Shown: positions 5,391-19,728 of the stretch, piece by piece
Layout of the letters: each line of letters starts with the position of its first letter
Position numbering within the stretch: position 1 is the stretch's first letter
Virus record (IMG/VR): IMGVR_UViG_3300007516_000020
Coordinates: 1-58,892 of that record
DNA length: 58,892 nt
Origin: a virus
Reading direction: 5' to 3' (one strand)
Notes under the pieces: model-generated
What the model was told of the DNA's origin: nothing
Seen by the model: only the letters and a program-made list of their open reading frames with translations
Database searches by the model: none
Program-made: the position numbers and the translations under genes

Positions 5391-5416
5391 GTTCGTCTTT
5401 ATTATGGGGTGATGTG

Positions 5417-7318: not shown

Positions 7319-7392
7319 GGGGCCATCGTCCAATAGGAAGATAGCTGAATGGCATTCAGCAGACGAGGGGGCGGTACCCTCTGGCTCCACCA
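7319..7392 (+). tRNA. tRNA-Ala(GGC)
   Basis: The acceptor GGGGCCA/TGGCTCC includes the alanine-specific G3-U70 pair; A73, CCA encoded. Anticodon loop ATGGCAT. T-loop GGCGGTA (G55, C56) with D-loop A18-G19: the altered elbow. Confidence 0.9.
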
Positions 7393-7399
7393 CAAATAT

Positions 7400-7475
7400 G
7401 CGCTGGTACTCTAACTAGCAAGGGGCCCACCCGATAAGTGGGAATATGTGAGTGCAAATCTCACCCGGCGCACCA
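7400..7475 (+). tRNA. tRNA-Ile(GAT) with C33
   Basis: Acceptor GCGCTGG/CCGGCGC, A73, CCA. Anticodon stem CCCAC/GTGGG with loop CCGATAA, so position 33 is C and not the near-universal U. T-loop TGCAAAT with A18-G19. Confidence 0.85.
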
Positions 7476-7482
7476 AGCGTAT

Positions 7483-7556
7483 ATGGGATAAGTGTTACAG
7501 CAGCACAGTAGTCTCCAAAACTACGGGCGCAGGTGCGACTCCTGCATCCCATGCCA
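7483..7556 (+). tRNA. tRNA-Trp(CCA)
   Basis: Acceptor ATGGGAT/ATCCCAT with A1-U72 and G73 as in bacterial tRNA-Trp; anticodon loop CTCCAAA; CCA encoded. Position 8 is A, not U. T-loop TGCGACT with A18-G19. Confidence 0.9.
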
Positions 7557-7574
7557 AAAGAAGAGGAATGTATC

Positions 7575-8102
7575 ATGTTGTCAATGACTTTGTTACTCAA
7601 CACCACCTATGAACCTATCCAGGTCGTTGGTTGGCAGCGAGCGATTACCCTGTTGTTTCAGGGAAAGTGTGAAGTCCTTGAGGAACACGATGAAGAAATC
7701 CATTCGATTTCTTTCACGATGAAGATTCCTTCAGTACTCAGAATGTTGATGCCAGCAAGGATCAAGCGTAAGGTCCCAGTGAAGTTCACCAGGTTGAACA
7801 TCTTTACGCGAGACGGTTGGAAGTGTCAATACTGCGGCGACAAGTTTTCCAGCAATGAATTGACTTTCGACCATGTTGTTCCTGTGACTCAGGGTGGCCG
7901 TAAAAGTTGGGAAAACATCACGACCGCGTGCGTGGACTGTAACTCTCGGAAGGCTGGGCGTACTCCTCAGCAAGCAGGAATGAAGCTCTTGAAGAAGCCC
8001 AAGCAGCCTATGTGGTCACAAGTAATCACTGTTACCGCGGGGCTACGAAAGACCCCTGATAACTGGGCATCATACTTGTACTGGAATGTTGAGCTGACAT
8101 AA
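7575..8102 (+). CDS. HNH endonuclease, 175 aa
   Basis: The N-terminal segment (LLLNTTYEPIQVVGWQRA, ITLLFQGKCEVLEE) and the HNH core are those of a common bacterial/phage HNH family. The core shows CQYCG, then FDHVVPVTQGG with the catalytic His, a WENITTAC segment with Asn, and CxxC, near residues 88-140, so the zinc ribbon and ββα-metal fold look intact. It lies inside the tRNA array between tRNA-Trp and a structured spacer, a frequent site for mobile nucleases. AGAGGAA upstream supports the ATG at 7575. It may cut competitor DNA to spread by homing, or be a free-standing phage nuclease. Confidence 0.85.
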   Translation: MLSMTLLLNTTYEPIQVVGWQRAITLLFQGKCEVLEEHDEEIHSISFTMKIPSVLRMLMPARIKRKVPVKFTRLNIFTRDGWKCQYCGDKFSSNELTFDHVVPVTQGGRKSWENITTACVDCNSRKAGRTPQQAGMKLLKKPKQPMWSQVITVTAGLRKTPDNWASYLYWNVELT

Positions 8103-8107
8103 ATCCT

Positions 8108-8197
8108 GTGGAGTGGTGTAAACACCAAGCACGATAAACGCAGAGGGGAAGACCCTCAAATGCGGGATAAGTAGGAGTCTAGAAATCTCCTCTCCAC
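8108..8197 (+). ncRNA. Cloverleaf-like structured spacer
   Basis: The ends pair (GTGGAG/CTCCAC) and enclose three hairpins: TGGTG/CACCA, GAGGG/CCCTC and GGAG/CTCC. It looks like a decayed tRNA or a tRNA-mimic: there is no CCA and no acceptable anticodon loop. Confidence 0.4.
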
Positions 8198-8209
8198 TGA
8201 AAATAGTTC

Positions 8210-8238
8210 TTGACAAACGGTTCGGAATTTGTTATAGT
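8210..8238 (+). promoter_or_regulatory. sigma70-type promoter inside the tRNA island
   Basis: TTGACA, 17-bp spacer, TG-T-TATAGT, 30 bases before tRNA-Thr(TGT). Confidence 0.75.
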
Positions 8239-8267
8239 AAGAGAGTGAGATAAGAAATTGAGAGTTT

Positions 8268-8343
8268 GCCGCTGTGAGTCAGATAGTTGATTGCCTCTCT
8301 TGTAAGGAGGATTAGGCTGGTGCAAGTCCAGTCAGCGGCTCCA
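8268..8343 (+). tRNA. tRNA-Thr(TGT)
   Basis: Acceptor GCCGCTG/CAGCGGC with G1-C72 and C2-G71, U73, CCA. Anticodon loop CTTGTAA. T-loop TGCAAGT with A18-G19. Its 3' end is copied in the repeat array that follows. Confidence 0.9.
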
Positions 8344-8575
8344 TTGTTGATAGGCAATCCAACGTAGTGTTGGATGGGACGCCAGGGAAAGTGCCACGTG
8401 CAACTCTTTCCCAGTCAGCGGCTCCATTGTTGATAGGCAATCCAACGTAGTGTTGGATGGGACGCCAGGGAAAGTGCCACGTGCAACTCTTTTCCGGTCA
8501 GCGGCTCCATTGTTGATAGGCAAACCAACGTAGTGTTGGATGGGACGCCAGGGAAAGTGCAACTCTTTCAGACCC
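8341..8575 (+). repeat. 83-bp tandem repeat, about 2.8 copies, tRNA-like
   Basis: Units begin at 8341, 8424 and 8507. Each has a 7-bp hairpin ATCCAAC/GTTGGAT (one base weaker in copy 3), a T-arm-like hairpin GAAAG/CTTTC and, in copies 1-2, the 3' end of tRNA-Thr. In copy 3 the T-arm loop is exactly 7 nt (TGCAACT), and GATAGG (8515) pairs with CCTATC (8574), giving an acceptor stem, one hairpin and a T-arm but no D-arm. Copies 1-2 carry a 7-nt insert in that loop. Confidence 0.7.
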
Positions 8576-8653
8576 TATCGAATAGCGCGGAAATGGGTGT
8601 AGCGCGATACAAATAGCCCGTACATTTTCCTCTTGAGAAACAGAGGATCGATT

Positions 8654-8728
8654 GTGATCGTAGCATAAGTAGTAATGCGCTAGTTTGTGGCACTAGTTAA
8701 GAGGGTGCAAGTCCCTTCGATCACCCCA
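8654..8728 (+). tRNA. tRNA-His(GTG)
   Basis: Acceptor GTGATCG/CGATCAC with the histidine-specific C73; CCA encoded; anticodon loop TTGTGGC. The base before G1 is U, so the required G-1 is not encoded and would need addition or special processing. T-loop TGCAAGT with A18-G19. Confidence 0.9.
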
Positions 8729-8730
8729 TA

Positions 8731-8808
8731 GCCAATCATGACGATTGGCACGAAGCATGATAGCATCCACCTGAGACGTGGACTGTGAGCAACAGGGAAA
8801 CTGCTATC
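8731..8808 (+). ncRNA. Structured spacer with D-armless tRNA-like fold
   Basis: A hairpin GCCAATC/GATTGGC (8731-8749) precedes a second element: GATAGCA (8759) pairs with TGCTATC (8802-8808), enclosing TCCAC-CTGAGAC-GTGGA with a 7-nt loop and a CTGT/ACAG hairpin. It shares TGATAG, TCCA...TGGA and CAGGGAAA with the 83-bp repeats. No CCA. Confidence 0.45.
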
Positions 8809-8815
8809 GATATAC

Positions 8816-8891
8816 GGGCCCTTAGCTCATTCAGGAGAGCGCCGCACTTGCAATGCGGAGGTGGTCGGAGCAAAGCCGACAGGGTCCACCA
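8816..8891 (+). tRNA. tRNA-Ala(TGC)
   Basis: Acceptor GGGCCCT/AGGGTCC with G3-U70, A73, CCA. Anticodon loop CTTGCAA. T-loop AGCAAAG (G55) with D-loop A18-G19. Confidence 0.92.
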
Positions 8892-8950
8892 TAAAGTCCT
8901 GGTAGGGATTTAGAAGGCAGAATATCGGGACCAGAATTTTGAGAAAATAT

Positions 8951-9025
8951 CTAGGTGTGGGTCAATGGCAGACCACTCGGTTTGGGGCCGAGACCATGCA
9001 GGTTCGAGTCCTGTCACCTAGACCA
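8951..9025 (+). tRNA. tRNA-Pro(TGG)
   Basis: Acceptor CTAGGTG/CACCTAG with proline-type C1-G72, A73, CCA. Anticodon loop TTTGGGG. Canonical elbow (GG, TTCGAGT). Confidence 0.92.
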
Positions 9026-9097
9026 CTAACTCGGCACAATCGCTATTGTGCGATGCCCCCACGGTTCGGTGGGGTTAGAGTGCCGGCACTAAAATAC
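9026..9097 (+). ncRNA. Structured spacer with paired ends
   Basis: CGGCAC (9032) can pair with GTGCCG (9080), enclosing CAAT-CGCT-ATTG and CCCCAC/GTGGGG hairpins; AGTGCCGGCACT is also a perfect palindrome. A tRNA-sized RNA without anticodon or CCA; function unknown. Confidence 0.3.
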
Positions 9098-9172
9098 GCT
9101 CCCATCGAATACTGGCTAGTTCATCTGGCTTTCAACCAGAAAAAGAGAGATCGATACTCTCTGGGAGCACCA
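9098..9172 (+). tRNA. tRNA-Glu(TTC)
   Basis: Acceptor GCTCCCA/TGGGAGC, A73, CCA. Anticodon loop CTTTCAA. With T-stem GAGAG/CTCTC the T-loop is ATCGATA (U55, C56) and the D-loop has GG: canonical elbow. Confidence 0.9.
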
Positions 9173-9183
9173 TTAGAATAGAC

Positions 9184-9261
9184 GCCGGCGTGAAGGGAAT
9201 TGGTATACCTGTTTGGTCGAGAGCCAGACGCTTGTGGGTTCGACTCCCACCGACGGCACCA
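9184..9261 (+). tRNA. tRNA-Leu(GAG), short variable loop, C33
   Basis: Acceptor GCCGGCG/CGACGGC (one G-A mismatch), A73, CCA, and a Leu-type D-arm. Anticodon loop TCGAGAG has C33. The variable loop is only 5 nt, whereas bacterial tRNA-Leu normally has a long arm. Canonical elbow. Confidence 0.8.
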
Positions 9262-9271
9262 AAAGAATTAT

Positions 9272-9347
9272 AGCGGGTGGATGGGGATAGTTCTCCTATT
9301 GGGCTCATAACCCGATGTCCGTAGTGCAATTCTACGACCCGCAACCA
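9272..9347 (+). tRNA. Initiator tRNA-fMet(CAT)
   Basis: Position 1 (A) cannot pair with A72, and the anticodon stem carries three consecutive G-C pairs (GGG/CCC) around loop CTCATAA: the two hallmarks of bacterial initiator tRNA. A73, CCA. T-loop TGCAATT with A18-G19. Confidence 0.88.
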
Positions 9348-9355
9348 CATAGTAC

Positions 9356-9429
9356 TGCGGTAAGCACAAGCGTAGCAGAACGATTTCATAAGTCGTTTCT
9401 AGAGGGTGCGACTCCCTCTACCGCAACCA
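9356..9429 (+). tRNA. tRNA with CAT anticodon (elongator Met or Ile2)
   Basis: Acceptor TGCGGTA/TACCGCA fully paired, so not an initiator; A73, CCA; anticodon loop TTCATAA. Whether C34 becomes lysidine (Ile, AUA) or the tRNA is Met cannot be decided here. T-loop TGCGACT with A-G in the D-loop. Confidence 0.88.
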
Positions 9430-9436
9430 ACTTTGT

Positions 9437-9513
9437 GCGCCTGTAGCCCAACGGCAGGAGGCGACGGTCTTAGAAGCCGTACAGTACAGGTTCAAATCCT
9501 GTCAGGCGCACCA
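9437..9513 (+). tRNA. tRNA-Leu(TAG), short variable loop
   Basis: Acceptor GCGCCTG/CAGGCGC, A73, CCA. Anticodon loop CTTAGAA. The variable loop is 5 nt, unlike normal leucine tRNAs. Canonical elbow (GG, TTCAAAT). Confidence 0.82.
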
Positions 9514-9525
9514 TAATAGAATTAT

Positions 9526-9600
9526 GGGTTGCAAGCTTTCAAAGTGAAGCTCCCGGCTTTTAACCGGAGGAACTCGGCGCGATACCGAGGCGACCCACCA
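9526..9600 (+). tRNA. tRNA-Lys(TTT)
   Basis: Acceptor GGGTTGC/GCGACCC, A73, CCA. Anticodon loop CTTTTAA, a target for 2-thiouridine at 34. T-loop CGCGATA (G55) with A18-G19. Confidence 0.9.
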
Positions 9601-9749
9601 ACGAATTGCTCAGTGTACGAGTCAATGGAAGTTGTTTTGATGTCTTTGACTCAGATACGAAGCACGAATTTAGCGAGGCTCTACAATTACTGAGACACCG
9701 TAGAGCGTAAAGGGAAATGGAGTTAGTAATTTCCCCCTCGTAAAGTCAC
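9601..9749 (+). ncRNA. Structured intergenic RNA, no ORF
   Basis: Three strong 7-bp hairpins in 149 bases: GAGTCAA/TTGACTC (9619-9652), GCTCTAC/GTAGAGC (9678-9706) and GGGAAAT/ATTTCCC (9712-9735). CGAG (9674) and CTCG (9737) can close the last two into a three-way junction. No coding frame is seen and no family is recognised. Confidence 0.4.
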
Positions 9750-9839
9750 GCACCCGCGCCTTGATAGGCAGAGGGGCCTTATAAGCCCGTCGCTCTAGAT
9801 CAGAGCCTTGACTGGGTTTGATTCCCAGCGGGTGTACCA
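9750..9839 (+). tRNA. tRNA with TAT anticodon (Ile, AUA) and long variable arm
   Basis: Acceptor GCACCCG/CGGGTGT (G1-U72), A73, CCA. Anticodon loop CTTATAA. The variable region is about 20 nt and contains hairpin GCTCT/AGAGC, a class II feature not expected for isoleucine. D-loop G18-A19 and T-loop TTTGATT (U56) give an A19-U56 pair. Confidence 0.75.
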
Positions 9840-9859
9840 TACATATAAAGGGGATGCTC

Positions 9860-10072
9860 ATGAAGGTCAAGGACAGAAACTTAAAAGTTTTGGTCGATGT
9901 AGCCGAGAAAGGTTGTCAGGGGTTCAAGTGCTACTGGCCGCGCCCAGACCCAGGCGTCTTCACTCAAGGCTCTGGATATCGGTCCCGCGACCCATCTGGC
10001 AAAACCAAGCCCGGTTGGTTGTGCGGCACCCGAGAAATACGTGGTTGCCCGGACAATCCTGTACCACGATAG
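9860..10072 (+). CDS. Hypothetical Cys-containing protein, 70 aa
   Basis: Within the tRNA island. The start at 9860 has AAAGGGG six bases upstream. It contains four Cys (KGCQGFKC...WLCGT...GCP) and is rich in Gly and Pro, so a small zinc-binding fold is possible. No family is recognised. Confidence 0.45.
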   Translation: MKVKDRNLKVLVDVAEKGCQGFKCYWPRPDPGVFTQGSGYRSRDPSGKTKPGWLCGTREIRGCPDNPVPR

Positions 10073-10096
10073 ATGACCCGAAACACAGGGATTCTG

Positions 10097-10114
10097 GTGT
10101 ACACAAGTGTACAC
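10097..10114. promoter_or_regulatory. 18-bp perfect palindrome, candidate operator
   Basis: GTGTACACAAGTGTACAC is an inverted repeat whose half-site GTGTACAC is itself palindromic. It lies 31 bp before the -35 of the 10146 promoter. Confidence 0.45.
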
Positions 10115-10145
10115 ATTAGAATTCTCTAATGTTGAAGAAAAGCCC

Positions 10146-10173
10146 TTGACTTATTTCCTCGTTATGCTATAAT
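10146..10173 (+). promoter_or_regulatory. sigma70-type promoter
   Basis: TTGACT, 16-bp spacer, TG-C-TATAAT. Confidence 0.75.
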
Positions 10174-10198
10174 TAGAGCATAGGGAATGGAGAACAAG

Positions 10199-10402
10199 AT
10201 GACTGAGAACAAAAATAGGAACATCATCATTGCCCAGTTCACCAACCACGATGATGCAATGACCGCATTCGTTGTTGAGTCGTTTCTAGGTGGATACGGT
10301 GTCTCCCTTCGCGACGACGACTCCGGCGAGTTCGTCGGATTCGCGATCCACGGCATCAAGAGCTTAGGGACCGCGATTGCTAAGGCGAAGGAAGTGCTTT
10401 AA
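10199..10402 (+). CDS. Hypothetical protein, 67 aa
   Basis: GGAG sets the start at 10199, with 10187 as an alternative. The IIIAQFTNHDDAMTAFVVESFLGGYGVSL pattern (beta strand, helix, beta strand) resembles a small ferredoxin-like domain. First gene behind the 10146 promoter. Function unknown. Confidence 0.55.
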   Translation: MTENKNRNIIIAQFTNHDDAMTAFVVESFLGGYGVSLRDDDSGEFVGFAIHGIKSLGTAIAKAKEVL

Positions 10403-10409
10403 ATAAGGC

Positions 10410-10437
10410 TTGTATTAGTGATAACGTAGTCTATAGT
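10410..10437 (+). promoter_or_regulatory. Weak sigma70-type promoter
   Basis: TTGTAT, 16-bp spacer, TATAGT, before the 10463 gene. Confidence 0.4.
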
Positions 10438-10462
10438 GTTTTCAACGCAAAGGAGACTTATA

Positions 10463-10738
10463 ATGGAAATGTCAGAGCATGAATTGGTGACGGTCTCGAC
10501 GCCTGGTGGGGACCTACATTATCGCCTGCACGATGGCGAGATTGTTCAACAATGGGTCGAGGGAGAGGGAGAGTGGGTGGATCAAACCAGTAGTGGGCCG
10601 AAAGATGAAGTGGCATTGACCCAACTCTCGGTGACTCCTGGCCATGTATTTTACGCGACGAGGTTCGGGGAACGGTGGCAGTGGGTTCAGACGACAGAAC
10701 AGTGGATGATGGTCACCGGCAAACATATTTCGGCGTGA
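10463..10738 (+). CDS. Hypothetical protein, 91 aa
   Basis: AAAGGAG site at the chosen start. The product is beta-rich with many Trp (EWVDQT, RWQWVQTTEQW). No family is recognised. It is directly followed by tRNA-Tyr, so the transcript probably continues into the tRNAs. Confidence 0.5.
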   Translation: MEMSEHELVTVSTPGGDLHYRLHDGEIVQQWVEGEGEWVDQTSSGPKDEVALTQLSVTPGHVFYATRFGERWQWVQTTEQWMMVTGKHISA

Positions 10739-10752
10739 AGAGACTCAATAAC

Positions 10753-10836
10753 GGAGGTATAGTCTCGTACGGCGCGAGGGCTGGCTGTAAACCAGTTGTT
10801 AATACCCAGAGGGTTCGATTCCTTCTACCTCCACCA
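10753..10836 (+). tRNA. tRNA-Tyr(GTA)
   Basis: Acceptor GGAGGTA/TACCTCC, A73, CCA. Anticodon loop CTGTAAA. The variable region is 12 nt, a reduced class II arm as fits Tyr. Canonical elbow. Confidence 0.9.
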
Positions 10837-10869
10837 TAATGCCAATAGTCACTGTGAAGAGACTCAAGA

Positions 10870-10930
10870 GTAGTAGCATACCGCGGGGAAGGCATGGGGG
10901 AGGACCTGGTTCAATTCCAGGCATGACTAC
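10870..10930 (+). pseudogene. tRNA remnant
   Basis: It has a perfect T-arm CCTGG-TTCAATT-CCAGG and matching ends GTAGT/ACTAC, but no paired D or anticodon arm and no CCA; 61 nt in all. Probably a deleted tRNA, or a further tRNA-like RNA. Confidence 0.5.
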
Positions 10931-10945
10931 ATAAGATCAGATATC

Positions 10946-10988
10946 TTGTAGGCATATAAGATGTACAGCGTGTAGGCATACAAGCTGT
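10946..10988 (+). repeat. Imperfect 24-bp tandem repeat
   Basis: Two copies of a TTGTAGGCATAYAAG-type unit (10946 and 10970) in the leader of the 11019 gene. Confidence 0.45.
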
Positions 10989-11018
10989 GTGGCGTGTACA
11001 GCCGTGATCGGAGTAGTC

Positions 11019-11204
11019 ATGGAGTATGATGGATTGTATACCCCTGTATTTTGGAGTCAGATGAAAGTTTACAAGAAGAAGCGCCGAAGTTGCCCAATGT
11101 GCAAACCAAATAAGATGGGGATAGAGCCCTGTTGGACAGCGAAGGATCTTGATAGACTGAAGCGAATGGAAAAGGAAGCGAGAGAAATAAAGAGAACAGA
11201 TTAG
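11019..11204 (+). CDS. Small putative zinc-binding protein, 61 aa
   Basis: CGGAG site before the ATG at 11019; a GTG at 10989 would add 10 residues. It contains CPMC and a later Cys (PCW) and has a very basic, helical C-terminus (RLKRMEKEAREIKR). Nucleic-acid binding is possible. It lies between tRNA-Tyr and tRNA-Asp. Confidence 0.45.
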   Translation: MEYDGLYTPVFWSQMKVYKKKRRSCPMCKPNKMGIEPCWTAKDLDRLKRMEKEAREIKRTD

Positions 11205-11210
11205 AAATAT

Positions 11211-11286
11211 GCACTCGGAGCCTGTAGGATGGGCGCTTGATTGTCAATCAAGAATAAAGCGGGATCGTTACCCGTCGAGTGCGCCA
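11211..11286 (+). tRNA. tRNA-Asp(GTC)
   Basis: Acceptor GCACTCG/CGAGTGC, G73 as expected for Asp, CCA. Anticodon loop TTGTCAA. T-loop ATCGTTA (U55, C56) with GG in the D-loop. Confidence 0.92.
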
Positions 11287-11290
11287 TGAT

Positions 11291-11364
11291 GTCGATGTAG
11301 CCAAGGGGATTGGCACCGGTCTGCAAAACCGTTTACGTTGGTTCGATTCCAACCATCGACTCCA
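11291..11364 (+). tRNA. tRNA-Cys(GCA)
   Basis: Acceptor GTCGATG/CATCGAC, U73 as expected for Cys, CCA. Anticodon loop CTGCAAA. Canonical elbow. Confidence 0.92.
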
Positions 11365-11372
11365 TACAATAC

Positions 11373-11447
11373 GCACTGCAAGCATTAGTGGTGATGCTTC
11401 CGGCTCTTAACCGGAAGAACCGAGTTCGACTCTCGGGCGGTGCACCA
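11373..11447 (+). tRNA. tRNA-Lys(CTT)
   Basis: Acceptor GCACTGC/GCGGTGC, A73, CCA. Anticodon loop CTCTTAA. Canonical elbow (TAGTGGTG, TTCGACT). Confidence 0.92.
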
Positions 11448-11450
11448 TAT

Positions 11451-11524
11451 AGGGATATCGTCTAATAGCAAGACAACAGGCTTTGAACCTGTGAACCTAG
11501 GGGCGGTACCTAGTATCCCTTCCA
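11451..11524 (+). tRNA. tRNA-Gln(TTG)
   Basis: Acceptor AGGGATA/TATCCCT, U73, CCA. Anticodon loop CTTTGAA, a 2-thiouridine target. T-loop GGCGGTA with A18-G19. Confidence 0.9.
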
Positions 11525-11535
11525 TAGAGGTTATC

Positions 11536-12048
11536 ATGACAGTCTTTTTGACAGCGGATACACATTTCGGCCACGCGGGTATCTGTACATTCTTGAATGC
11601 AGATGGAACGAAAGTGCGACCCTGGACTGATGTTGCCGAGATGGATGAAGAGTTGGTCAAGCGGTGGAATGAAGTCGTAAAGCCAACAGACAAAGTGTAT
11701 CACCTGGGCGATGTGGTGATCAGCCGAAAGGCACTAGCGATCCTGGGTCGTTTGAATGGGGACAAGGTACTTATCAAGGGAAATCATGACATCTTCAAGG
11801 TGTCTGACTATCTGAAGTATTTTCGTGATATCCGTAGTTACCATGTGACGGATAAGCTGATTTTATCGCATATCCCTATTCACCCCGATAGCAAAGGTCG
11901 CTTTCGTGGAAATGTTCATGGACACTTGCATGGGCGAGCATTAGAGGATACGTGGTATCAGTGTGTATGTGTTGAGCATACAGATTATCGACCAATTGCT
12001 TTTGAGGAGATTCAAAGAAGGACTAACAAAGGAATTATTGCGGATTAG
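11536..12048 (+). CDS. Calcineurin-like metallophosphoesterase, 170 aa
   Basis: All metal-site blocks of the calcineurin-like superfamily are visible: ADTHFGH near residue 7, HLGDVV near 57, GNHD near 82, LSHIP near 110 and GNVHGHLHGR near 123. The substrate (phosphodiester, cyclic nucleotide or RNA end) cannot be told from sequence. AGAGG sets the start at 11536. It is embedded among tRNAs, and its stop codon lies within tRNA-Gln(CTG), so gene and tRNA compete for the same transcript. A role in end healing before RtcB/ligase is possible but speculative. Confidence 0.8.
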   Translation: MTVFLTADTHFGHAGICTFLNADGTKVRPWTDVAEMDEELVKRWNEVVKPTDKVYHLGDVVISRKALAILGRLNGDKVLIKGNHDIFKVSDYLKYFRDIRSYHVTDKLILSHIPIHPDSKGRFRGNVHGHLHGRALEDTWYQCVCVEHTDYRPIAFEEIQRRTNKGIIAD

Positions 12049-12112
12049 CCAAACGGCCAGGCAGTGGACTCTGAATCCACCTAACAAGGTTCGACTCCTT
12101 GATCCGCAACCA
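12039..12112 (+). tRNA. tRNA-Gln(CTG)
   Basis: Acceptor TGCGGAT/ATCCGCA with U1-A72, A73, CCA. Anticodon loop CTCTGAA. Canonical elbow. The first 10 bases overlap the end of the phosphoesterase gene. Confidence 0.92.
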
Positions 12113-12129
12113 AATATCGCAGAATGTAT

Positions 12130-12207
12130 TCCGGTCTAGCATTCAGGGTGAGTGCGCTCCGCTGTTAACGGAGAACGAGCCAGGTTCGATCCCTGGGACC
12201 GGAGCCA
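12130..12207 (+). tRNA. tRNA-Asn(GTT)
   Basis: Acceptor TCCGGTC/GACCGGA, G73, CCA as expected for Asn. Anticodon loop CTGTTAA. Canonical elbow. Confidence 0.93.
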
Positions 12208-12211
12208 ACAT

Positions 12212-12285
12212 GCTCCTATAGCACAATGGTAGTGCGACCGCCTGAAGAGCGGTACACCGAGGTTCGATTCCTCGTGGGAGCGCCA
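12212..12285 (+). tRNA. tRNA-Phe(GAA)
   Basis: Acceptor GCTCCTA/TGGGAGC, G73 (bacterial Phe usually has A73), CCA. Anticodon loop CTGAAGA. Canonical elbow. Confidence 0.9.
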
Positions 12286-12292
12286 AGAGAAT

Positions 12293-12367
12293 GCGGGTGT
12301 GGCAGAATGGTTTTGCACTTCCTTGCCAAGGAAGACTACGCGGGTTCGATCCCCGCCACCCGCTCCA
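12293..12367 (+). tRNA. tRNA-Gly(GCC)
   Basis: Acceptor GCGGGTG/CACCCGC, U73 as for bacterial Gly, CCA. Anticodon loop TTGCCAA. Canonical elbow. Confidence 0.93.
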
Positions 12368-12393
12368 TTAGAGATCCAGGGCGTAGGAAAGTC
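12358..12393 (+). repeat. 36-bp direct repeat, copy 1, with 5' fragment of a tRNA-Pro
   Basis: Identical to 12509-12544. It spans the 3' end of a Gly tRNA, the spacer and the first 17 bases of tRNA-Pro. Here the Pro tRNA is not completed, so this copy is a truncated duplicate. Confidence 0.7.
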
Positions 12394-12444
12394 GCCCCTC
12401 AAGAAACAATAGAGAAAATTCGACAAGGTGTTTTGAAATATAAT

Positions 12445-12518
12445 GCGGGTTTGGTATAGAAGCTGTGCCTCAGCCTTCCAAGCTGAAGAGGCCGTTGCGA
12501 GTACGGCAACCCGCTCCA
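12445..12518 (+). tRNA. tRNA-Gly(TCC)
   Basis: Acceptor GCGGGTT/AACCCGC, U73, CCA. Anticodon loop CTTCCAA. T-loop TGCGAGT with A18-G19. Confidence 0.9.
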
Positions 12519-12544
12519 TTAGAGATCCAGGGCGTAGGAAAGTC
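12509..12544 (+). repeat. 36-bp direct repeat, copy 2
   Basis: Identical to 12358-12393; here it runs into the complete tRNA-Pro(CGG). Confidence 0.7.
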
Positions 12545-12605
12545 TGGTTGATCCTCTCCCCTCGGAAGGGAGAAATCGGTGGTTCAAATCCACCCGCCCT
12601 GACCA
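12528..12605 (+). tRNA. tRNA-Pro(CGG)
   Basis: Acceptor CAGGGCG/CGCCCTG with C1-G72, A73, CCA. Anticodon loop CTCGGAA. Canonical elbow. Confidence 0.92.
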
Positions 12606-12615
12606 AAATGAGTGC

Positions 12616-12644
12616 TTGACATTGATATACTATTGCCCTGTAAG
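12616..12644 (+). promoter_or_regulatory. Possible promoter, weak -10
   Basis: AGTGCTTGACATTGA matches the -35 region of the 7056 promoter exactly, but the -10 at 17 bp is only TGTAAG and lies inside tRNA-Thr(CGT). Confidence 0.3.
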
Positions 12645-12709
12645 ACTAGAAAGCGAGTTGCCTGTTTCGTAAGCAGGAGAGAACGATGCAAGTTCGTTAC
12701 GGGGCTCCA
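12635..12709 (+). tRNA. tRNA-Thr(CGT)
   Basis: Acceptor GCCCTGT/ACGGGGC, U73, CCA. Anticodon loop TTCGTAA. T-loop TGCAAGT with A18-G19. Confidence 0.9.
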
Positions 12710-12715
12710 TTATAT

Positions 12716-12792
12716 GCTGGTGTAGACCAAGGGCAGAGTCACCAAACTTAAAATCTGGACAAGTGCAGGTTCGATTCCTGTCACCAGCACCA
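12716..12792 (+). tRNA. tRNA-Leu(TAA), short variable loop
   Basis: Acceptor GCTGGTG/CACCAGC, A73, CCA. Anticodon loop CTTAAAA with one A-C mismatch in the anticodon stem. The variable loop is 6 nt, abnormally short for Leu. Canonical elbow. Confidence 0.82.
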
Positions 12793-12796
12793 ATAC

Positions 12797-12873
12797 GCCG
12801 AAGTGATGCAACTGGCAGACATGGCTGATTCAAAACCAGTCTCTTGTGGGTTCGACTCCCACCTTCGGCACCA
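12797..12873 (+). tRNA. tRNA-Leu(CAA), short variable loop
   Basis: Acceptor GCCGAAG/CTTCGGC as in many bacterial tRNA-Leu, A73, CCA. Anticodon loop TTCAAAA with an A31-C39 mismatch. The variable loop is 5 nt. Canonical elbow. Confidence 0.82.
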
Positions 12874-12918
12874 ATGCGTAGATTAGAGTAGGTTTTCTCC
12901 GCAAAATAGAAAGGAAAA

Positions 12919-13198
12919 TAGGACAACTAAACCATCACAAGTCTTACGACTTGAGGAACTTCGGGACACCAAGAACAGGACAGTGGCTAACGACCACCCA
13001 GAGTAATCTGAGGATTAGAGCCACAGTGACGATGCCGCGCAAGCGGAGTGAAACGAGCAATCTCTGTCCGGTGCAACTCCAAATAGGCTGGTGTGCTGTT
13101 CGCACAAGACCCAGCGGGTAGGAGGCTTGAGGGTATCAGTAATGATACTCCTAGAGAAATGATGGTTCACGACAGAATCCCGGGTATCGGTTGTCCTA
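12919..13198 (+). ncRNA. rnpB: RNase P RNA (bacterial type, 280 nt)
   Basis: The catalytic RNA of RNase P, which removes tRNA 5' leaders. The ends pair as P1 (TAGGACAAC/GTTGTCCTA). P3 is CAAGTC-TTAC-GACTTG. The first conserved region begins GAGGAA at 12953. A GNRA-capped helix CCGC-GCAA-GCGG (13035-13046) matches P9, followed by GTGAAACGAG. CAACTCCAAATAGG (13074-13087) and GCGGGTAGGAGGCTTGAG (13114-13131) follow the E. coli order. P18 is GTATCA-GTAA-TGATAC, again GNRA-capped. The universal CACGACAGAA is at 13168-13177, followed by CCCGGGTATCGG. At 280 nt it is shorter than the 377-nt E. coli RNA. It lies among tRNAs, 8 nt before tRNA-Thr(GGT), and must itself be released from the transcript. 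No protein subunit (RnpA) is seen in this window. Confidence 0.92.
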
Positions 13199-13206
13199 CA
13201 ATTTAC

Positions 13207-13281
13207 GCCCTCAAAGAATAGATAGCGATTCGCCACCTTGGTAAGGTGGATAGACCGGCGCAAGTCCGGTTGAGGGCTCCA
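13207..13281 (+). tRNA. tRNA-Thr(GGT)
   Basis: Acceptor GCCCTCA/TGAGGGC, U73, CCA. Anticodon loop TTGGTAA. T-loop CGCAAGT (G55) with D-loop AGATAGCG (A18-G19). Confidence 0.9.
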
Positions 13282-13289
13282 TGAAATAC

Positions 13290-13364
13290 GCACCGCGAGC
13301 CGGTTGAATAGGCACCTGCCCTACAAGCAGATTCAAAGAGGTTTGATTCCTCTGCGGTGCACCA
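13290..13364 (+). tRNA. tRNA-Val(TAC) with C33
   Basis: Acceptor GCACCGC/GCGGTGC, A73, CCA. Anticodon loop CCTACAA has C33. D-loop G18-A19 with T-loop TTTGATT: A19-U56 replaces G19-C56. Confidence 0.85.
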
Positions 13365-13374
13365 TGAGGTTGCA

Positions 13375-13440
13375 ATGACACGCAACCAGACCGAAGTGTT
13401 ACTAGAAGATATGTTTCAGTGCGCGGCCGTAAAGAAATAA
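13375..13440 (+). CDS. Possible 21-aa peptide
   Basis: A short ATG frame between tRNA-Val and tRNA-Arg with GAGG a few bases upstream. Too short to judge; possibly chance. Confidence 0.2.
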   Translation: MTRNQTEVLLEDMFQCAAVKK

Positions 13441-13441
13441 T

Positions 13442-13518
13442 GTCCCTGTGGTCCAGATGGAAAAGACGCCTCCCTGCGAAGGAGGAGATCGGTGGTTCAA
13501 GTCCACCCAGGGACACCA
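13442..13518 (+). tRNA. tRNA-Arg(GCG)
   Basis: Acceptor GTCCCTG/CAGGGAC, A73, CCA. Anticodon loop CTGCGAA. Canonical elbow. Confidence 0.92.
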
Positions 13519-13524
13519 TAAGAA

Positions 13525-13551
13525 AGGAACGTGATTGGACGTTCCTATTTT
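13525..13551 (+). terminator. Rho-independent terminator in the tRNA island
   Basis: AGGAACGT-GATTGG-ACGTTCCT followed by ATTTT. It closes the transcript that carries RNase P RNA. Confidence 0.65.
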
Positions 13552-13563
13552 GATCGGGGATCT

Positions 13564-13641
13564 ATGTTTGCTTTTACATTGCTGTTCTTATATGAGTTTT
13601 TTCTGTTTAGGCAAGCAGCAAAGTACTACGGTATGAAATAG
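13564..13641 (+). CDS. Hydrophobic peptide, 25 aa
   Basis: GGGGAT upstream of ATG; the product is one hydrophobic helix (FAFTLLFLYEFFLF) with a short basic tail. It could be a small membrane peptide. It ends three bases before tRNA-Ser(GCT). Confidence 0.3.
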   Translation: MFAFTLLFLYEFFLFRQAAKYYGMK

Positions 13642-13643
13642 AG

Positions 13644-13730
13644 GGAAGATTGGCAGAGAGGCCTATTGCGCTGGTTTGCTAAACCATGCGGGGTAACACC
13701 CACGAAGGTTCGAATCCTTCATCTTCCGCC
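13644..13730 (+). tRNA. tRNA-Ser(GCT)
   Basis: Acceptor GGAAGAT/ATCTTCC, G73 as for Ser, CCA; long class II variable arm. Anticodon loop TTGCTAA. Canonical elbow. Confidence 0.92.
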
Positions 13731-13736
13731 ATGTTT

Positions 13737-13825
13737 TGGAAGGTTCACCGGACAGGCGCGCCGGGACCGTCTCGAAAGCGGATCGAGGGTAACACCTTGG
13801 GGATCAAGACCTCAGCCTTCCGCCA
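13737..13825 (+). tRNA. tRNA-Ser(CGA)
   Basis: Acceptor GGAAGGT/GCCTTCC, G73, CCA; long variable arm. Anticodon loop CTCGAAA. T-loop ATCAAGA (U55, C56). Confidence 0.88.
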
Positions 13826-13842
13826 TTGTTATGAAAGGATAT

Positions 13843-14196
13843 ATGTCTCTTTTTGATGTTCTTGGTAATCCTAATAAGACTCCTGTCATATCCGCGGCCG
13901 TGGAATTGTACGCTGAGAGGTTGGAGGAACAAAATCATCGAGTGAAGATATTCGACACACCAAAGGGATTGTGTATGTCGTGTTACATGTCGCACATTTA
14001 TCGGTCACCGAAACTCGAAGGTGGGAACTGGCATATCACTTGTACGGTTCCCAAAGGACCATCACTCATTATGCCCGACGATATCTCTTACTGCAATCGC
14101 TTCGAGAAGAAGGGTGAACAGACACTTGATGATATGAAGCGGGTAGCAAGACTCATTGAAAAAGAAGATGGGAAAAAGGTTGGATTCACGGCATAA
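13843..14196 (+). CDS. Hypothetical protein, 117 aa
   Basis: AAAGGA sets the start at 13843. It contains CMSCYMSH and a later Cys, a possible metal site, and an acidic/basic helical C-terminus. Located between two serine tRNAs and possibly moved there as a cassette. No family is recognised. Confidence 0.5.
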   Translation: MSLFDVLGNPNKTPVISAAVELYAERLEEQNHRVKIFDTPKGLCMSCYMSHIYRSPKLEGGNWHITCTVPKGPSLIMPDDISYCNRFEKKGEQTLDDMKRVARLIEKEDGKKVGFTA

Positions 14197-14199
14197 TAT

Positions 14200-14287
14200 G
14201 GAAGAGTGACCGAGAGGCTAATGGTGCTCGCTTGGAAAGCGATGCGGTGTAACAGCCACGCAGGTTCAAATCCTGTCTCTTCCGCCA
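14200..14287 (+). tRNA. tRNA-Ser(GGA)
   Basis: Acceptor GGAAGAG/CTCTTCC, G73, CCA; long variable arm. Anticodon loop TTGGAAA. Canonical elbow. Confidence 0.92.
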
Positions 14288-14297
14288 TAATTAGTGC

Positions 14298-14326
14298 TTG
14301 ACATTCTTAGTCAGTTTGTGTATAAT
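14298..14326 (+). promoter_or_regulatory. Consensus sigma70 promoter abutting tRNA-Ser(TGA)
   Basis: TTGACA, 17-bp spacer, TG-TATAAT. The -10 ends one base before the tRNA 5' end, so initiation would fall inside the tRNA; it probably serves the downstream gene and tmRNA. Confidence 0.75.
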
Positions 14327-14327
14327 T

Positions 14328-14417
14328 GGAAGTGTAATCAGGCGAGCGTACTGGGACCGCCTTGAAAGCGGATCGGCGGTGAAAGCCGTTGGGGTGCAAG
14401 TCCTCACACTTCCGCCA
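14328..14417 (+). tRNA. tRNA-Ser(TGA)
   Basis: Acceptor GGAAGTG/CACTTCC, G73, CCA; long variable arm. Anticodon loop CTTGAAA. T-loop TGCAAGT with A-G in the D-loop. The 3' end is duplicated at 14717-14750. Confidence 0.9.
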
Positions 14418-14420
14418 TTT
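14387..14420 (+). repeat. 34-bp direct repeat, copy 1 (3' end of tRNA-Ser)
   Basis: Identical to 14717-14750. The two copies flank the 14495 gene, as left and right ends of an inserted cassette would. Confidence 0.75.
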
Positions 14421-14494
14421 TATATGAAGGATGTGTTGTGTCTAATCTATTGTGGCTAGCCCTGGGTCTGTTGGTATGGTGTAAGAGGAAACCC

Positions 14495-14713
14495 ATGTTG
14501 AAATTGAAATTTGAATTGTCCGATGAGGACTGGAAAAAGGTTAATCGGTTCATACGAAAACAGGACAAGCTCACTGGCACCGGCGCAAATTATGGAGCGA
14601 TTGGTGGAGGTTATACCTACCAATTTACACCTACCTCGTTGGGGGTCATAGTCAAAGTTGAGAATTGTGTGACAAAGGCATCCATCAATCTGACAGATTT
14701 TGATAGCTGGTAA
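14495..14713 (+). CDS. Hypothetical protein in a tRNA-flanked cassette, 72 aa
   Basis: AGAGG supports the ATG at 14495; a GTG at 14438 would add a hydrophobic N-terminal segment of 19 residues. The protein has a helical, charged start (FELSDEDWKKVNRFIRKQ) and a Gly-rich beta half. No family is recognised. It is bracketed by 34-bp copies of the tRNA-Ser 3' end. Confidence 0.5.
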   Translation: MLKLKFELSDEDWKKVNRFIRKQDKLTGTGANYGAIGGGYTYQFTPTSLGVIVKVENCVTKASINLTDFDSW

Positions 14714-14716
14714 CAG

Positions 14717-14750
14717 CGTTGGGGTGCAAGTCCTCACACTTCCGCCATTT
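14717..14750 (+). repeat. 34-bp direct repeat, copy 2
   Basis: Second copy of the tRNA-Ser(TGA) 3' end (T-arm, acceptor strand and CCA) without a 5' half. att-like or a product of tandem duplication. Confidence 0.75.
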
Positions 14751-14811
14751 GGATAATTATGGAAGTTGTAGTCACATCGGGGTTGTGGTTTGAGAGATAG
14801 AATCATAATTT

Positions 14812-15155
14812 GGGGGTGAATTAGGTATCGACAGAGGCGTATAGAGAAGAACGGACATGCCGTGGACCAGGACCACGTAAATACTTGGAAAAACCAGAAA
14901 TGCCGAACAAGAGTTTGCATTAGCGGCATAAACGCCGCTCTCTGAAAGACCAAGAGGCTCCTGTAGGTCTGGAAGGGTCATTCATTGGAGGCACAGTGAT
15001 AAAGGCTAGCATGGTAGAGTGTTAGCTGAGTGTCAATCTACCACAGATCATATAAGGTGTCAGTCCCTTATGTGAGCGTTGTAAGACTGACTAGCATGGA
15101 ATATCCACTTTGACGTTGCTTTTGGACCCGGGTGCAACTCCCGGCACCTCCACCA
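14812..15155 (+). ncRNA. ssrA: tmRNA (344 nt) with tag AEQEFALAA
   Basis: Rescues stalled ribosomes by acting as tRNA-Ala and then as mRNA for a degradation tag. The ends GGGGGTG/CACCTCC include G3-U70 and are followed by ACCA. The 5' part GGTATCGAC and the 3' part AAGACTGACTAGCATG match E. coli tmRNA blocks; the T-arm is CCGGG-TGCAACT-CCCGG. The tag frame at 14902-14931 reads AEQEFALAA then TAA, with the stop inside hairpin GCGGC-ATAAAC-GCCGC as usual; the resume codon may be GCC or the preceding AAT. A pseudoknot-type helix CGTGG/CCACG precedes it. T-loop G55 follows the altered elbow of the neighbouring tRNAs. Confidence 0.93.
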
Positions 15156-15201
15156 ATTCATTCGCTCGACTGCCATGTGTAGGAAATGGGCATACGAGAG
15201 G

Positions 15202-15236
15202 GACCCTCAAGACTTCAGATTGGGGTCCCAGCTTTT
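15202..15236 (+). terminator. Possible terminator after tmRNA
   Basis: GGGACCC/GGGTCCC stem with a 14-nt loop followed by AGCTTTTA; only a short U-tract, so termination may be partial or the hairpin may be a processing signal before tRNA-Glu. Confidence 0.4.
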
Positions 15237-15238
15237 AC

Positions 15239-15312
15239 GCTCCCATAGATTATTAGTAGATCGCTGGATTCTCAATCCAGAGAGCCGGGGGCAGTACCCG
15301 GTGGGAGCACCA
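15239..15312 (+). tRNA. tRNA-Glu(CTC)
   Basis: Acceptor GCTCCCA/TGGGAGC, A73, CCA. Anticodon loop TTCTCAA. T-loop GGCAGTA with A18-G19. Confidence 0.9.
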
Positions 15313-15318
15313 AAATAT

Positions 15319-15394
15319 GTCCCTGTGGGCCAACTGAAAGGTCACCCGCCTTCTAAGCGGGATTATGCGAGTTTGAGTCTCGCCGGGGACACCA
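15319..15394 (+). tRNA. tRNA-Arg(TCT)
   Basis: Acceptor GTCCCTG/CGGGGAC, A73, CCA. Anticodon loop CTTCTAA. D-loop AACTGAAA (G18-A19) with T-loop TTTGAGT: A19-U56. Confidence 0.92.
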
Positions 15395-15463
15395 AAGTAT
15401 ATTATGAGATTGACAGAAATCAAGCGCGAATTCAGAGGTTCAAACTGGAATGAAAGAATAAAC

Positions 15464-15538
15464 GCCGCTGTAGCCTAGTGTACAGGCACCTGCCTCCTAA
15501 GCGGGATAACGTGGGTTAGATTCCCACCAGTGGCACCA
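15464..15538 (+). tRNA. tRNA-Arg(CCT)
   Basis: Acceptor GCCGCTG/CAGTGGC, A73, CCA. Anticodon loop CTCCTAA. D-loop TAGTGTACA (G18-U19) with T-loop TTAGATT: U19-A56. Confidence 0.92.
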
Positions 15539-15544
15539 CATAAC

Positions 15545-15622
15545 CTCCCTGTGATGGCAATTGGACGCCGACCGCGCTTCGAACGCGGGATTATGTAGGT
15601 TCGAATCCTATCAGGGAGACCA
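15545..15622 (+). tRNA. tRNA-Arg(TCG)
   Basis: Acceptor CTCCCTG/CAGGGAG, A73, CCA. Anticodon loop CTTCGAA. Canonical elbow. Confidence 0.9.
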
Positions 15623-15626
15623 TTAC

Positions 15627-15700
15627 AGACCCTTAGTACATTAGCAGTATCCCGCCCCGACACGGCGGAGAGGACAGGGCAGAACTGTCAGGGTCTACCA
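15627..15700 (+). tRNA. tRNA-Val(GAC) with C33
   Basis: Acceptor AGACCCT/AGGGTCT, A73, CCA. Anticodon stem CCGCC/GGCGG with loop CCGACAC (C33). T-loop GGCAGAA with A18-G19. Confidence 0.82.
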
Positions 15701-15703
15701 TAT

Positions 15704-15780
15704 CGGACCGTAAACTTTAACTAGATGAGTGCCTGGCTTAAGCCAGGAAAACGAGGCGCGCTTCCTCGGCGGTCCGGCCA
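15704..15780 (+). tRNA. Atypical tRNA, anticodon uncertain (TAA?)
   Basis: Acceptor CGGACCG/CGGTCCG, G73, CCA, T-arm CGAGG-CGCGCTT-CCTCG, A18-G19 with G55. The anticodon stem CCTGG/CCAGG leaves a 6-nt loop CTTAAG, so the anticodon is unclear, and an extra G lies between T-stem and acceptor. Damaged or highly divergent. Confidence 0.55.
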
Positions 15781-17221: not shown

Positions 17222-17250
17222 TTGACAACGTGCCTAGACTCTGTTATACT
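17222..17250 (+). promoter_or_regulatory. sigma70-type promoter
   Basis: TTGACA, 17-bp spacer, TG-T-TATACT. The predicted start of transcription falls on the ATG at 17257. Confidence 0.75.
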
Positions 17251-17256
17251 TATAAC

Positions 17257-18195
17257 ATGATGAGAACACACATAGTGAATATGGTTTTCGGTTCCCACCT
17301 CTACGGCACGTCAAGCCCTTTGTCCGATAAGGACTACAAGGGCGTCTTTGTGCCTACCACCGACGAAATGCTATTGGGAAGATTCCCTAAGTCTATCAAT
17401 GAGTCCACGAAACTAAACTCAGGCGAAAAGAACACCGCCGCTGACACAGATAAGGAAACGTATTCCCTTCACTACTTCTTGGAATTGGCCAGGAAGGGTG
17501 AGACTGTGGCACTTGATATGCTTCATGCTCCAAAATCAGCGTGGGTGTCGCATAGCTGGCATTGGGAATATCTTGTTGCCAACAGACAAAAATTCTACAC
17601 CAAAAACCTTTCATCCTTGGTTGGTTATGCGCGGAAGCAATCGGCAAAGTATGGGGTGAAGGGAAGTAGACTTGCGGAAGCTAAGACTGTGTTGTCGCTT
17701 CTTGAAGCTACATTCTCAGGGGTCAAGGTGTCTGATATTGTGACACTTCTTCCTGTGGGTGAGCATTGTGGTATGATGACTGGGAATGGGGTCACGTTCT
17801 ATCAAGTGTGTGGAAAGAAATTGACTCTCAATGCCCTTGCTTCTCACTATGTCCCTATGATGGAAAAGTTTGTCAAGGAATATGGGGATCGGGCGAAGCA
17901 AGCAGAGGCGAACATGGGTGTGGACTGGAAAGCTGTGAGCCATGCTTTTCGTGCCGCCTATCAAGTTCGTGCGATCTTGCGAGATGGGGATTTCACCTAT
18001 CCATTATCTGAGACTGAGTTTATTCGTGCGGTGAAGTCGGGTACGCTGAACTTCAAGACTGAAGTGGGACCTAAGCTTGATGAACTGATGGATGAAGTTG
18101 AAAAACTATCCTCAGAATCAACTCTTCCCGAAGAAGTGAGTGGTGAGTTTGTTGATGCGGTGCTGTTGCACCTTGTAAAGAATACGGAGTTATAA
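17257..18195 (+). CDS. Nucleotidyltransferase (pol-beta superfamily), 312 aa
   Basis: The motif GSHLYGTSSPLSDKDYKGVF near residue 11 is the GS-x10-DxD catalytic signature of predicted nucleotidyltransferases common in large phages. The rest is helical. It would add a nucleotide to an unknown acceptor (RNA end, protein or small molecule). ATG 17257 coincides with the expected transcript start and has no ribosome site, so translation may be leaderless or start at ATG 17281. Next gene: DNA ligase, two bases away. Confidence 0.7.
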   Translation: MMRTHIVNMVFGSHLYGTSSPLSDKDYKGVFVPTTDEMLLGRFPKSINESTKLNSGEKNTAADTDKETYSLHYFLELARKGETVALDMLHAPKSAWVSHSWHWEYLVANRQKFYTKNLSSLVGYARKQSAKYGVKGSRLAEAKTVLSLLEATFSGVKVSDIVTLLPVGEHCGMMTGNGVTFYQVCGKKLTLNALASHYVPMMEKFVKEYGDRAKQAEANMGVDWKAVSHAFRAAYQVRAILRDGDFTYPLSETEFIRAVKSGTLNFKTEVGPKLDELMDEVEKLSSESTLPEEVSGEFVDAVLLHLVKNTEL

Positions 18196-19526: not shown

Positions 19527-19728
19527 AAGTTACTTCCCCATTCCCTTTGACCGATGGTATACCGAGAATCTGCCTGATATTCGTCGTGAGTTTAGCAAAG
19601 ATGGTCTGGATAAATTGAGGAATAGTCCAGAAAAGTTTGCTGCCTTGTTATACACTCTCAGGGTGGAGCACGATCAGAAGCGATGGACCAATTACTTGCA
19701 GTTTGTTGAGGATAATTATGTCGTATAA
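19516..19728 (+). CDS. Hypothetical protein, 70 aa
   Basis: ATG at 19516 with GGAAGAG upstream. A helical small protein (PFDRWYTENLPDIRREF...). Overlaps the rtcB start by 11 bases, which suggests coupled expression. Function unknown. Confidence 0.5.
   Translation: MLTKSYFPIPFDRWYTENLPDIRREFSKDGLDKLRNSPEKFAALLYTLRVEHDQKRWTNYLQFVEDNYVV

What the first reader, a model, noticed from the sequence alone, without database searches (positions are those of the whole stretch)
12919..13198. Phage-encoded RNase P RNA inside the tRNA array
A 280-nt RNA here carries the ordered conserved blocks of bacterial RNase P RNA: P1 pairing of the ends, GAGGAA, a GNRA-capped P9, GTGAAACG, CCAAATAGG, GGGTAGG...TTGAG, a GNRA-capped P18 and the universal CACGACAGAA followed by CGGGTATCGG. 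It lies between tRNA-Leu(CAA) and tRNA-Thr(GGT), in the same direction, just where a processing ribozyme for these tRNAs would be useful. I do not recall this as a known part of phage translation modules.
Basis: partly seen in the sequence, partly recalled or inferred. Interest (0 to 1): 0.95.

Follow-up and report, generated by a model that had tools for sequence, protein, structure and literature searches.

The report
RNase P ribozyme carried by phages
This virus of bacteria carries, in the middle of its own large set of tRNA genes, a gene for the catalytic RNA that trims tRNAs, a ribozyme thought to belong to cells; about thirty viral records in all, four of them from cultured phages, do the same, apparently unreported.

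Summary
Window 12919-13202 is a full-length bacterial type A RNase P RNA (RF00010, 180.7 bits, E 9e-57). Five related phage contigs (68-79% identical in this RNA) carry it after the same tRNA. Across the six, 44 of 84 base pairs change on both sides and stay paired, including 4 of 8 in the catalytic P4 helix; the bulged U and core blocks are kept. It is under selection as a ribozyme, not a relic. P13/P14 are missing. None of 29 records tested encodes the protein subunit RnpA, so the host presumably supplies it. The array also holds about 30 tRNAs and a tmRNA; RtcB, RlaP and an RNA ligase are encoded on the same contig. RNase P RNAs also lie inside tRNA arrays of about 24 further viral records in several lineages, including four cultured Microbacterium foliorum phages (A3Wally, Zooman, Big4, one name masked) whose unannotated ~215-nt version covaries too. 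It often sits 0-7 nt from a tRNA, so tRNA processing should release its ends. I found no report of phage RNase P RNA in open-access papers. Expression, catalysis and benefit are inferred, not shown.

The parts
12919..13202 (+). RNase P RNA, bacterial type A, lacking P13/P14; mature ends probably about 12919 and 13198
   Evidence: RF00010 180.7 bits, full length; own model R1 318.5 bits (by construction high); covariation over six phages
12958..12966 (+). P4, 5' strand (ACUUCGGGA) with the bulged U at 12961
   Evidence: Pairs 8/8 with 13178-13185; 4 of 8 pairs covary over six phages and none breaks
13178..13185 (+). P4, 3' strand, after the invariant ACAGAA block (conserved region V) at 13172-13177
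12973..12976 (+). P6, 5' strand (GAAC), pseudoknot with loop L17 at 13098-13101 (GUUC)
   Evidence: 100% paired, one double-change pair
13115..13122 (+). L15 CGGGUAGG, the predicted binding site for the tRNA 3' RCCA end
   Evidence: Invariant in all six; role from established RNase P knowledge
12797..12873 (+). tRNA-Leu(CAA), upstream neighbour in all six related phages
   Evidence: ARAGORN
13207..13282 (+). tRNA-Thr(GGT), downstream neighbour, 8 nt after P1
   Evidence: Read by eye; not called by ARAGORN or Rfam
7319..15780 (+). tRNA array: 27 tRNAs by ARAGORN plus more by Rfam or by eye, with some small ORFs
14812..15155 (+). tmRNA, tag AEQEFALAA
   Evidence: RF00023 119.3 bits; ARAGORN
19637..20908 (+). 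RtcB RNA ligase (same contig; part of the proposed RNA-repair context)
   Evidence: PF01139 E 7.5e-121
17230..18195 (+). RlaP-like RNA-repair nucleotidyltransferase
   Evidence: PF10127 E 1.5e-15; phrog_388
5357..5974 (+). RNA ligase (PF09414)
   Evidence: E 1.4e-13

Best explanation
The phage encodes its own RNase P catalytic RNA. It is transcribed within the tRNA array, freed by the same enzymes that cut out the tRNAs, and binds the host's RnpA protein to form a hybrid RNase P. That enzyme removes the 5' leaders of the phage's tRNAs and tmRNA, adding to or replacing host RNase P during infection. Shown here: the RNA is a full-length type A RNase P RNA, its catalytic core and pseudoknots are kept by compensatory change, it lies in tRNA arrays of several phage lineages, and no RnpA family gene was found in the records searched. 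Inferred: expression, assembly with host RnpA, catalysis and benefit to the phage.
For: RF00010 180.7 bits. Six-phage alignment: 95% of pair cells paired against 33-40% when slid, 44 pairs changed on both sides, P4 and P6 100% paired. Same position after tRNA-Leu(CAA) in all six. GGU in L15 matches the encoded CCA ends of the phage tRNAs. Second, compact lineage in four cultured phages and one contig: 56/56 pairs kept, 13 covarying, three of them in P4. About 30 viral records in all with this RNA inside tRNA arrays. No PF00825 match in 29 records checked, while ten control bacteria gave matches.
Against: No activity or expression data. P13/P14 are missing, though losses of P13, P14 and P18 occur in bacteria (PMC8172020). 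A close relative, G006, has the array and tmRNA but no RNase P RNA, so it is not essential. A strongly diverged RnpA could escape the Pfam profile, and most records are incomplete. The window and most relatives are metagenome contigs.
Confidence: 0.78

Rival explanations
1. Decoy: the RNA sequesters host RnpA, or pre-tRNAs, and lowers host RNase P activity rather than adding to it.
For: No RnpA in the phage records; part of the specificity domain is missing.
Against: A decoy needs no catalytic core, yet the P4 bulged U, ACAGAA, GAGGAA and L15 GGU are invariant and P4 is kept by compensatory change. The phage itself needs mature tRNAs.
Confidence: 0.08
2. Specialised enzyme: an active RNase P RNA whose reduced S-domain is tuned to odd phage tRNAs or to other phage RNAs, not a general copy of the host enzyme.
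For: Many array tRNAs have unusual T-loops or D-arms and are missed by standard tools; P13/P14 lost; the compact lineage has lost P12-P14 and P18 as well.
Against: The conserved tRNA-contact elements (L15 GGU, J11/12 GUGAAA) are largely kept; no substrate data.
Confidence: 0.1
3. Passenger or relic: captured with a tRNA cluster from a bacterium and drifting.
For: Absent from relative G006 at the same site; phage tRNA arrays are thought to be acquired horizontally.
Against: 44 covarying pairs over six phages and 13 over the Microbacterium-type set; no broken core in any of the six.
Confidence: 0.03
4. Chimeric assembly or bacterial DNA in a viral bin.
For: Some IMG/VR hits are plainly bacterial or prophage edges (L016, L097, L124).
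Against: Six independent contigs with the same tRNA neighbour; complete cultured phage genomes.
Confidence: 0.01

Closest known systems
Bacterial type A RNase P RNA (rnpB, M1 RNA; RF00010)
   Same: Core helices P1-P12 and P15-P18, P4 with bulged U, P6, L15 GGU, GNRA loops L9 and L18
   Different: Phage-borne, inside a tRNA array, no P13/P14, P4 sequence rewritten in pairs, no rnpA found in the phage records
Extra RNase P RNA homologues in Mycobacterium austroafricanum and M. sp. YC-RL4 (PMC9569102)
   Same: Extra RNase P RNAs with low similarity or an altered specificity domain next to an endonuclease gene; horizontal transfer suggested
   Different: Reported in bacterial genomes; the text I read does not link these RNAs to phages
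GOLLD and ROOL RNAs
   Same: Large structured RNAs; GOLLD lies in tRNA clusters of likely phage origin (PMC6582537)
   Different: Not RNase P; function not known
Phage T4 tRNA cluster
   Same: Phage tRNAs needing 5' processing by RNase P (PMC11143913)
   Different: Processed by the host enzyme; I know of no RNase P RNA in T4 (own knowledge)
Huge-phage translation genes (Al-Shayeb et al. 2020, PMC7162821)
   Same: tRNAs, tmRNA and SmpB in large phages
   Different: tRNAs and tmRNAs annotated; RNase P is not mentioned in the text

Membership tests
Bacterial type A RNase P RNA | Full-length match to the curated covariance model above gathering score | tested here: met
   180.7 bits, GA 100, model 1-367
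Bacterial type A RNase P RNA | P4 pairing between conserved regions I and V with a bulged U | tested here: met
   8/8 pairs in all six phages, four covarying
Bacterial type A RNase P RNA | P6 pseudoknot with P16/P17 (the type A arrangement) | tested here: met
   4/4 pairs in all six, one double change
Bacterial type A RNase P RNA | L15 GGU for the tRNA RCCA end | tested here: met
   CGGGTAGG invariant
Bacterial type A RNase P RNA | GNRA loops L9 and L18 | tested here: met
   GUAA, GUGA or GCAA in L9 and GUAA in L18 in all six
Bacterial type A RNase P RNA | P13/P14 in the specificity domain | tested here: not met
   23 nt where the model has 81. Not universal in type A: losses are reported in bacteria (PMC8172020), so this does not exclude membership
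Bacterial RNase P holoenzyme | RnpA protein subunit encoded together with the RNA | tested here: not met
   No PF00825 in 29 records; the phage appears to supply the RNA subunit only
Bacterial RNase P holoenzyme | 5' cleavage of pre-tRNA | not testable with these tools
   Needs a biochemical assay

The most novel reading that the evidence does not exclude
Large phages of several lineages have independently taken up the RNase P ribozyme as a unit of their tRNA arrays, forming hybrid phage-RNA/host-protein enzymes that keep phage tRNAs maturing when the host's own RNase P is limiting or under attack; the compact form (about 215 nt) would be among the smallest natural bacterial-type RNase P RNAs.
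Probability: 0.45. Interest if true: 0.92.

Novelty: new variant of a known kind. Interest (0 to 1): 0.88.

Why it matters
RNase P is treated as a cell's own essential enzyme. If phages carry its catalytic RNA, tRNA processing is something phages may need to control in infection, viral RNase P RNAs become a new natural source of minimal ribozymes, and some extra RNase P genes in bacteria may have a phage origin. The cultured Microbacterium phages make this directly testable.

Tried and rejected
blastn of the window RNA against 50,697 phage records found nothing, nor did that of relative L234; a bacterial query was needed to reveal A3Wally. The two-block pattern CAAATAGG...GGGTAGG mostly gave chance hits. 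Bacterial or prophage-edge hits were set aside: L016, L017, L124, L097, L247, L248. Microcystis phage MaAM05 (252 bits) was not counted: its neighbours fabI, engB and mtgA look bacterial and no terminase was found. Patterns from P8 and P4 also brought contigs without the RNA. No host hint: the baseplate protein had no relative in genome contigs. A FastTree of the RNAs has weak deep support and was not used to claim a donor. Ten literature searches found no report; subscription journals and preprints are mostly not held.

Full report
Observation. The window is a 58,892-base virus record. Its proteins include a T4-type baseplate wedge protein related to that of Pelagibacter phage HTVC008M, tail proteins and a gp32-like protein, so it is part of a myovirus. 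Between 7.3 and 15.8 kb lies an array of tRNAs and a tmRNA, all on the + strand. At 12919-13202 cmscan finds a full-length type A RNase P RNA (RF00010), 180.7 bits, E 8.8e-57.

Anatomy. P1-P12 and P15-P18 are present, including the two long-range helices. P4 (ACU[U]CGGGA with UCCCGGGU) is fully paired with its bulged U although its sequence differs from the bacterial AAG[U]CCGGG:CCCGGCUU, and P6 is GAAC:GUUC instead of the usual GGGC:GCCC (bacterial sequences from established knowledge and the Rfam consensus). L9 and L18 are GNRA loops. L15 carries GGU, which in bacterial RNase P binds the tRNA RCCA end (established knowledge); the phage tRNAs encode CCA. P13 and P14 are missing and P12 is short. 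Such losses of P13, P14 and P18 are not uncommon in bacteria (PMC8172020).

Relatives of the window. The baseplate protein identifies about 30 contigs at 68-100% identity. Searching 47 records gave five with the RNA, the largest three being 168-176 kb; with the window this makes six. In all six it follows tRNA-Leu(CAA); in four it is followed directly by tRNA-Thr(GGT). The six RNAs are 68-79% identical. Of 84 pairs, 44 have a change on both sides; 95.0% of cells are paired against 33-40% when partners are slid; P4 is 100% paired with four covarying pairs. The alignment was made by sequence, not fitted to the structure. This is strong evidence of selection on the structure, catalytic helix included. 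One relative, G006 (178.6 kb), has the array and tmRNA but only about 24 nt between tRNA-Leu(CAA) and tRNA-Thr(GGT), with no RNase P RNA: the gene is an optional unit at a fixed site.

A second lineage, in cultured phages. A bacterial query against GenBank phages led to Microbacterium phage A3Wally. Between two tRNA genes it has an unannotated RNA of about 215 nt: RF00010 72 bits, E 2.3e-20, below the gathering score. Phages Zooman, Big4 and a fourth whose name is masked carry it at 91-92% identity, also between tRNAs, as does a 171-kb contig, L299. It lacks P12-P14 and P18 but keeps P1-P8, P15-P17 and an 8-bp P6 (my reading). In the five sequences all 56 pairs are kept and 13 covary, three of them in P4.

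Wider distribution. Patterns from conserved regions I and V in IMG/VR found more records with the RNA inside a tRNA array. Confirmed by Rfam: L292, L280, L295, L273, L296, L270 and L283 above the gathering score (182-277 bits); L275, L267, L261 and L287 below it (64-85 bits, E 3e-17 or better), and L289 as a 3' fragment (55.9 bits, E 2e-14). Found with my own model only: L312, L313, L315, L317, L319, L320, L321 (E 2e-24 or better), with tRNAs around them. With the window family (6) and the Microbacterium type (5) this makes about 30 records; L315 and L319 look like the same or nearly the same phage. Recurring neighbours (Cys/Gly, Leu-CAG, Thr/Gly) mark several lineages. Phage terminase genes were found in G014, G024, G054, G056, G061 and G070; for the other metagenome contigs viral status rests on IMG/VR. 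In compact arrays the RNA lies 0-7 nt from a tRNA, so its 5' end should come from 3' processing of the tRNA before it and its 3' end from RNase P cleavage of the tRNA after it (inference).

Mechanism. No RnpA (PF00825) match was found in any of 29 records tested, while ten control bacteria gave one each time. The simplest reading is a hybrid enzyme of phage RNA and host RnpA that matures the phage tRNAs and tmRNA. The window also encodes RtcB, an RlaP-like protein and an RNA ligase; making and mending tRNAs may be one programme (inference). Steps not shown: expression, assembly, catalysis, benefit.

Prior work. Ten searches of open-access full text found no report of a phage RNase P RNA. The huge-phage paper does not mention RNase P. 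Closest: extra RNase P RNAs beside an endonuclease gene in two mycobacteria, thought horizontally acquired (PMC9569102). Subscription papers and most preprints could not be searched, so a report there cannot be excluded.

Noticed in passing
L246:2818-3038, L252, L253, L254: Unannotated compact RNase P RNA of about 215 nt in four cultured Microbacterium foliorum phages, between tRNA genes.
   Followed up: yes
L261, L267, L270, L273, L275, L280, L283, L287, L289, L292, L295, L296, L299, L312, L313, L315, L317, L319, L320, L321: Other viral contigs with RNase P RNA inside tRNA arrays, several lineages.
   Followed up: partly
L274, L259, L294: RNase P RNA in very large viral contigs (202, 372, 497 kb) away from a dense tRNA array; L274 also has a group I intron nearby.
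   Followed up: no
window 7319-15780: Several tRNAs (for example Thr, Val) are missed by ARAGORN and Rfam, perhaps because of odd D-arms or T-loops; by eye the set seems to cover all 20 amino acids.
   Followed up: partly
window 8330-8560: Three near-identical direct copies of a stretch containing the 3' end of a tRNA (TCAGCGGCTCCA...), like a decaying tandem duplication.
   Followed up: no
window 13780-13806, 14400-14418, 14725-14748: Repeated tRNA-Ser-like 3' ends (CTTCCGCCA), possibly more tRNA-Ser genes or remnants.
   Followed up: no
window 14298-14326: Perfect sigma-70 consensus TTGACA-17-TATAAT inside the array; none seen directly upstream of the RNase P RNA.
   Followed up: no
L245 (MW495066.1): Record named Microcystis phage MaAM05 carries a bacterial-looking RNase P RNA next to fabI, engB and mtgA; may be a mislabelled bacterial sequence.
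   Followed up: partly
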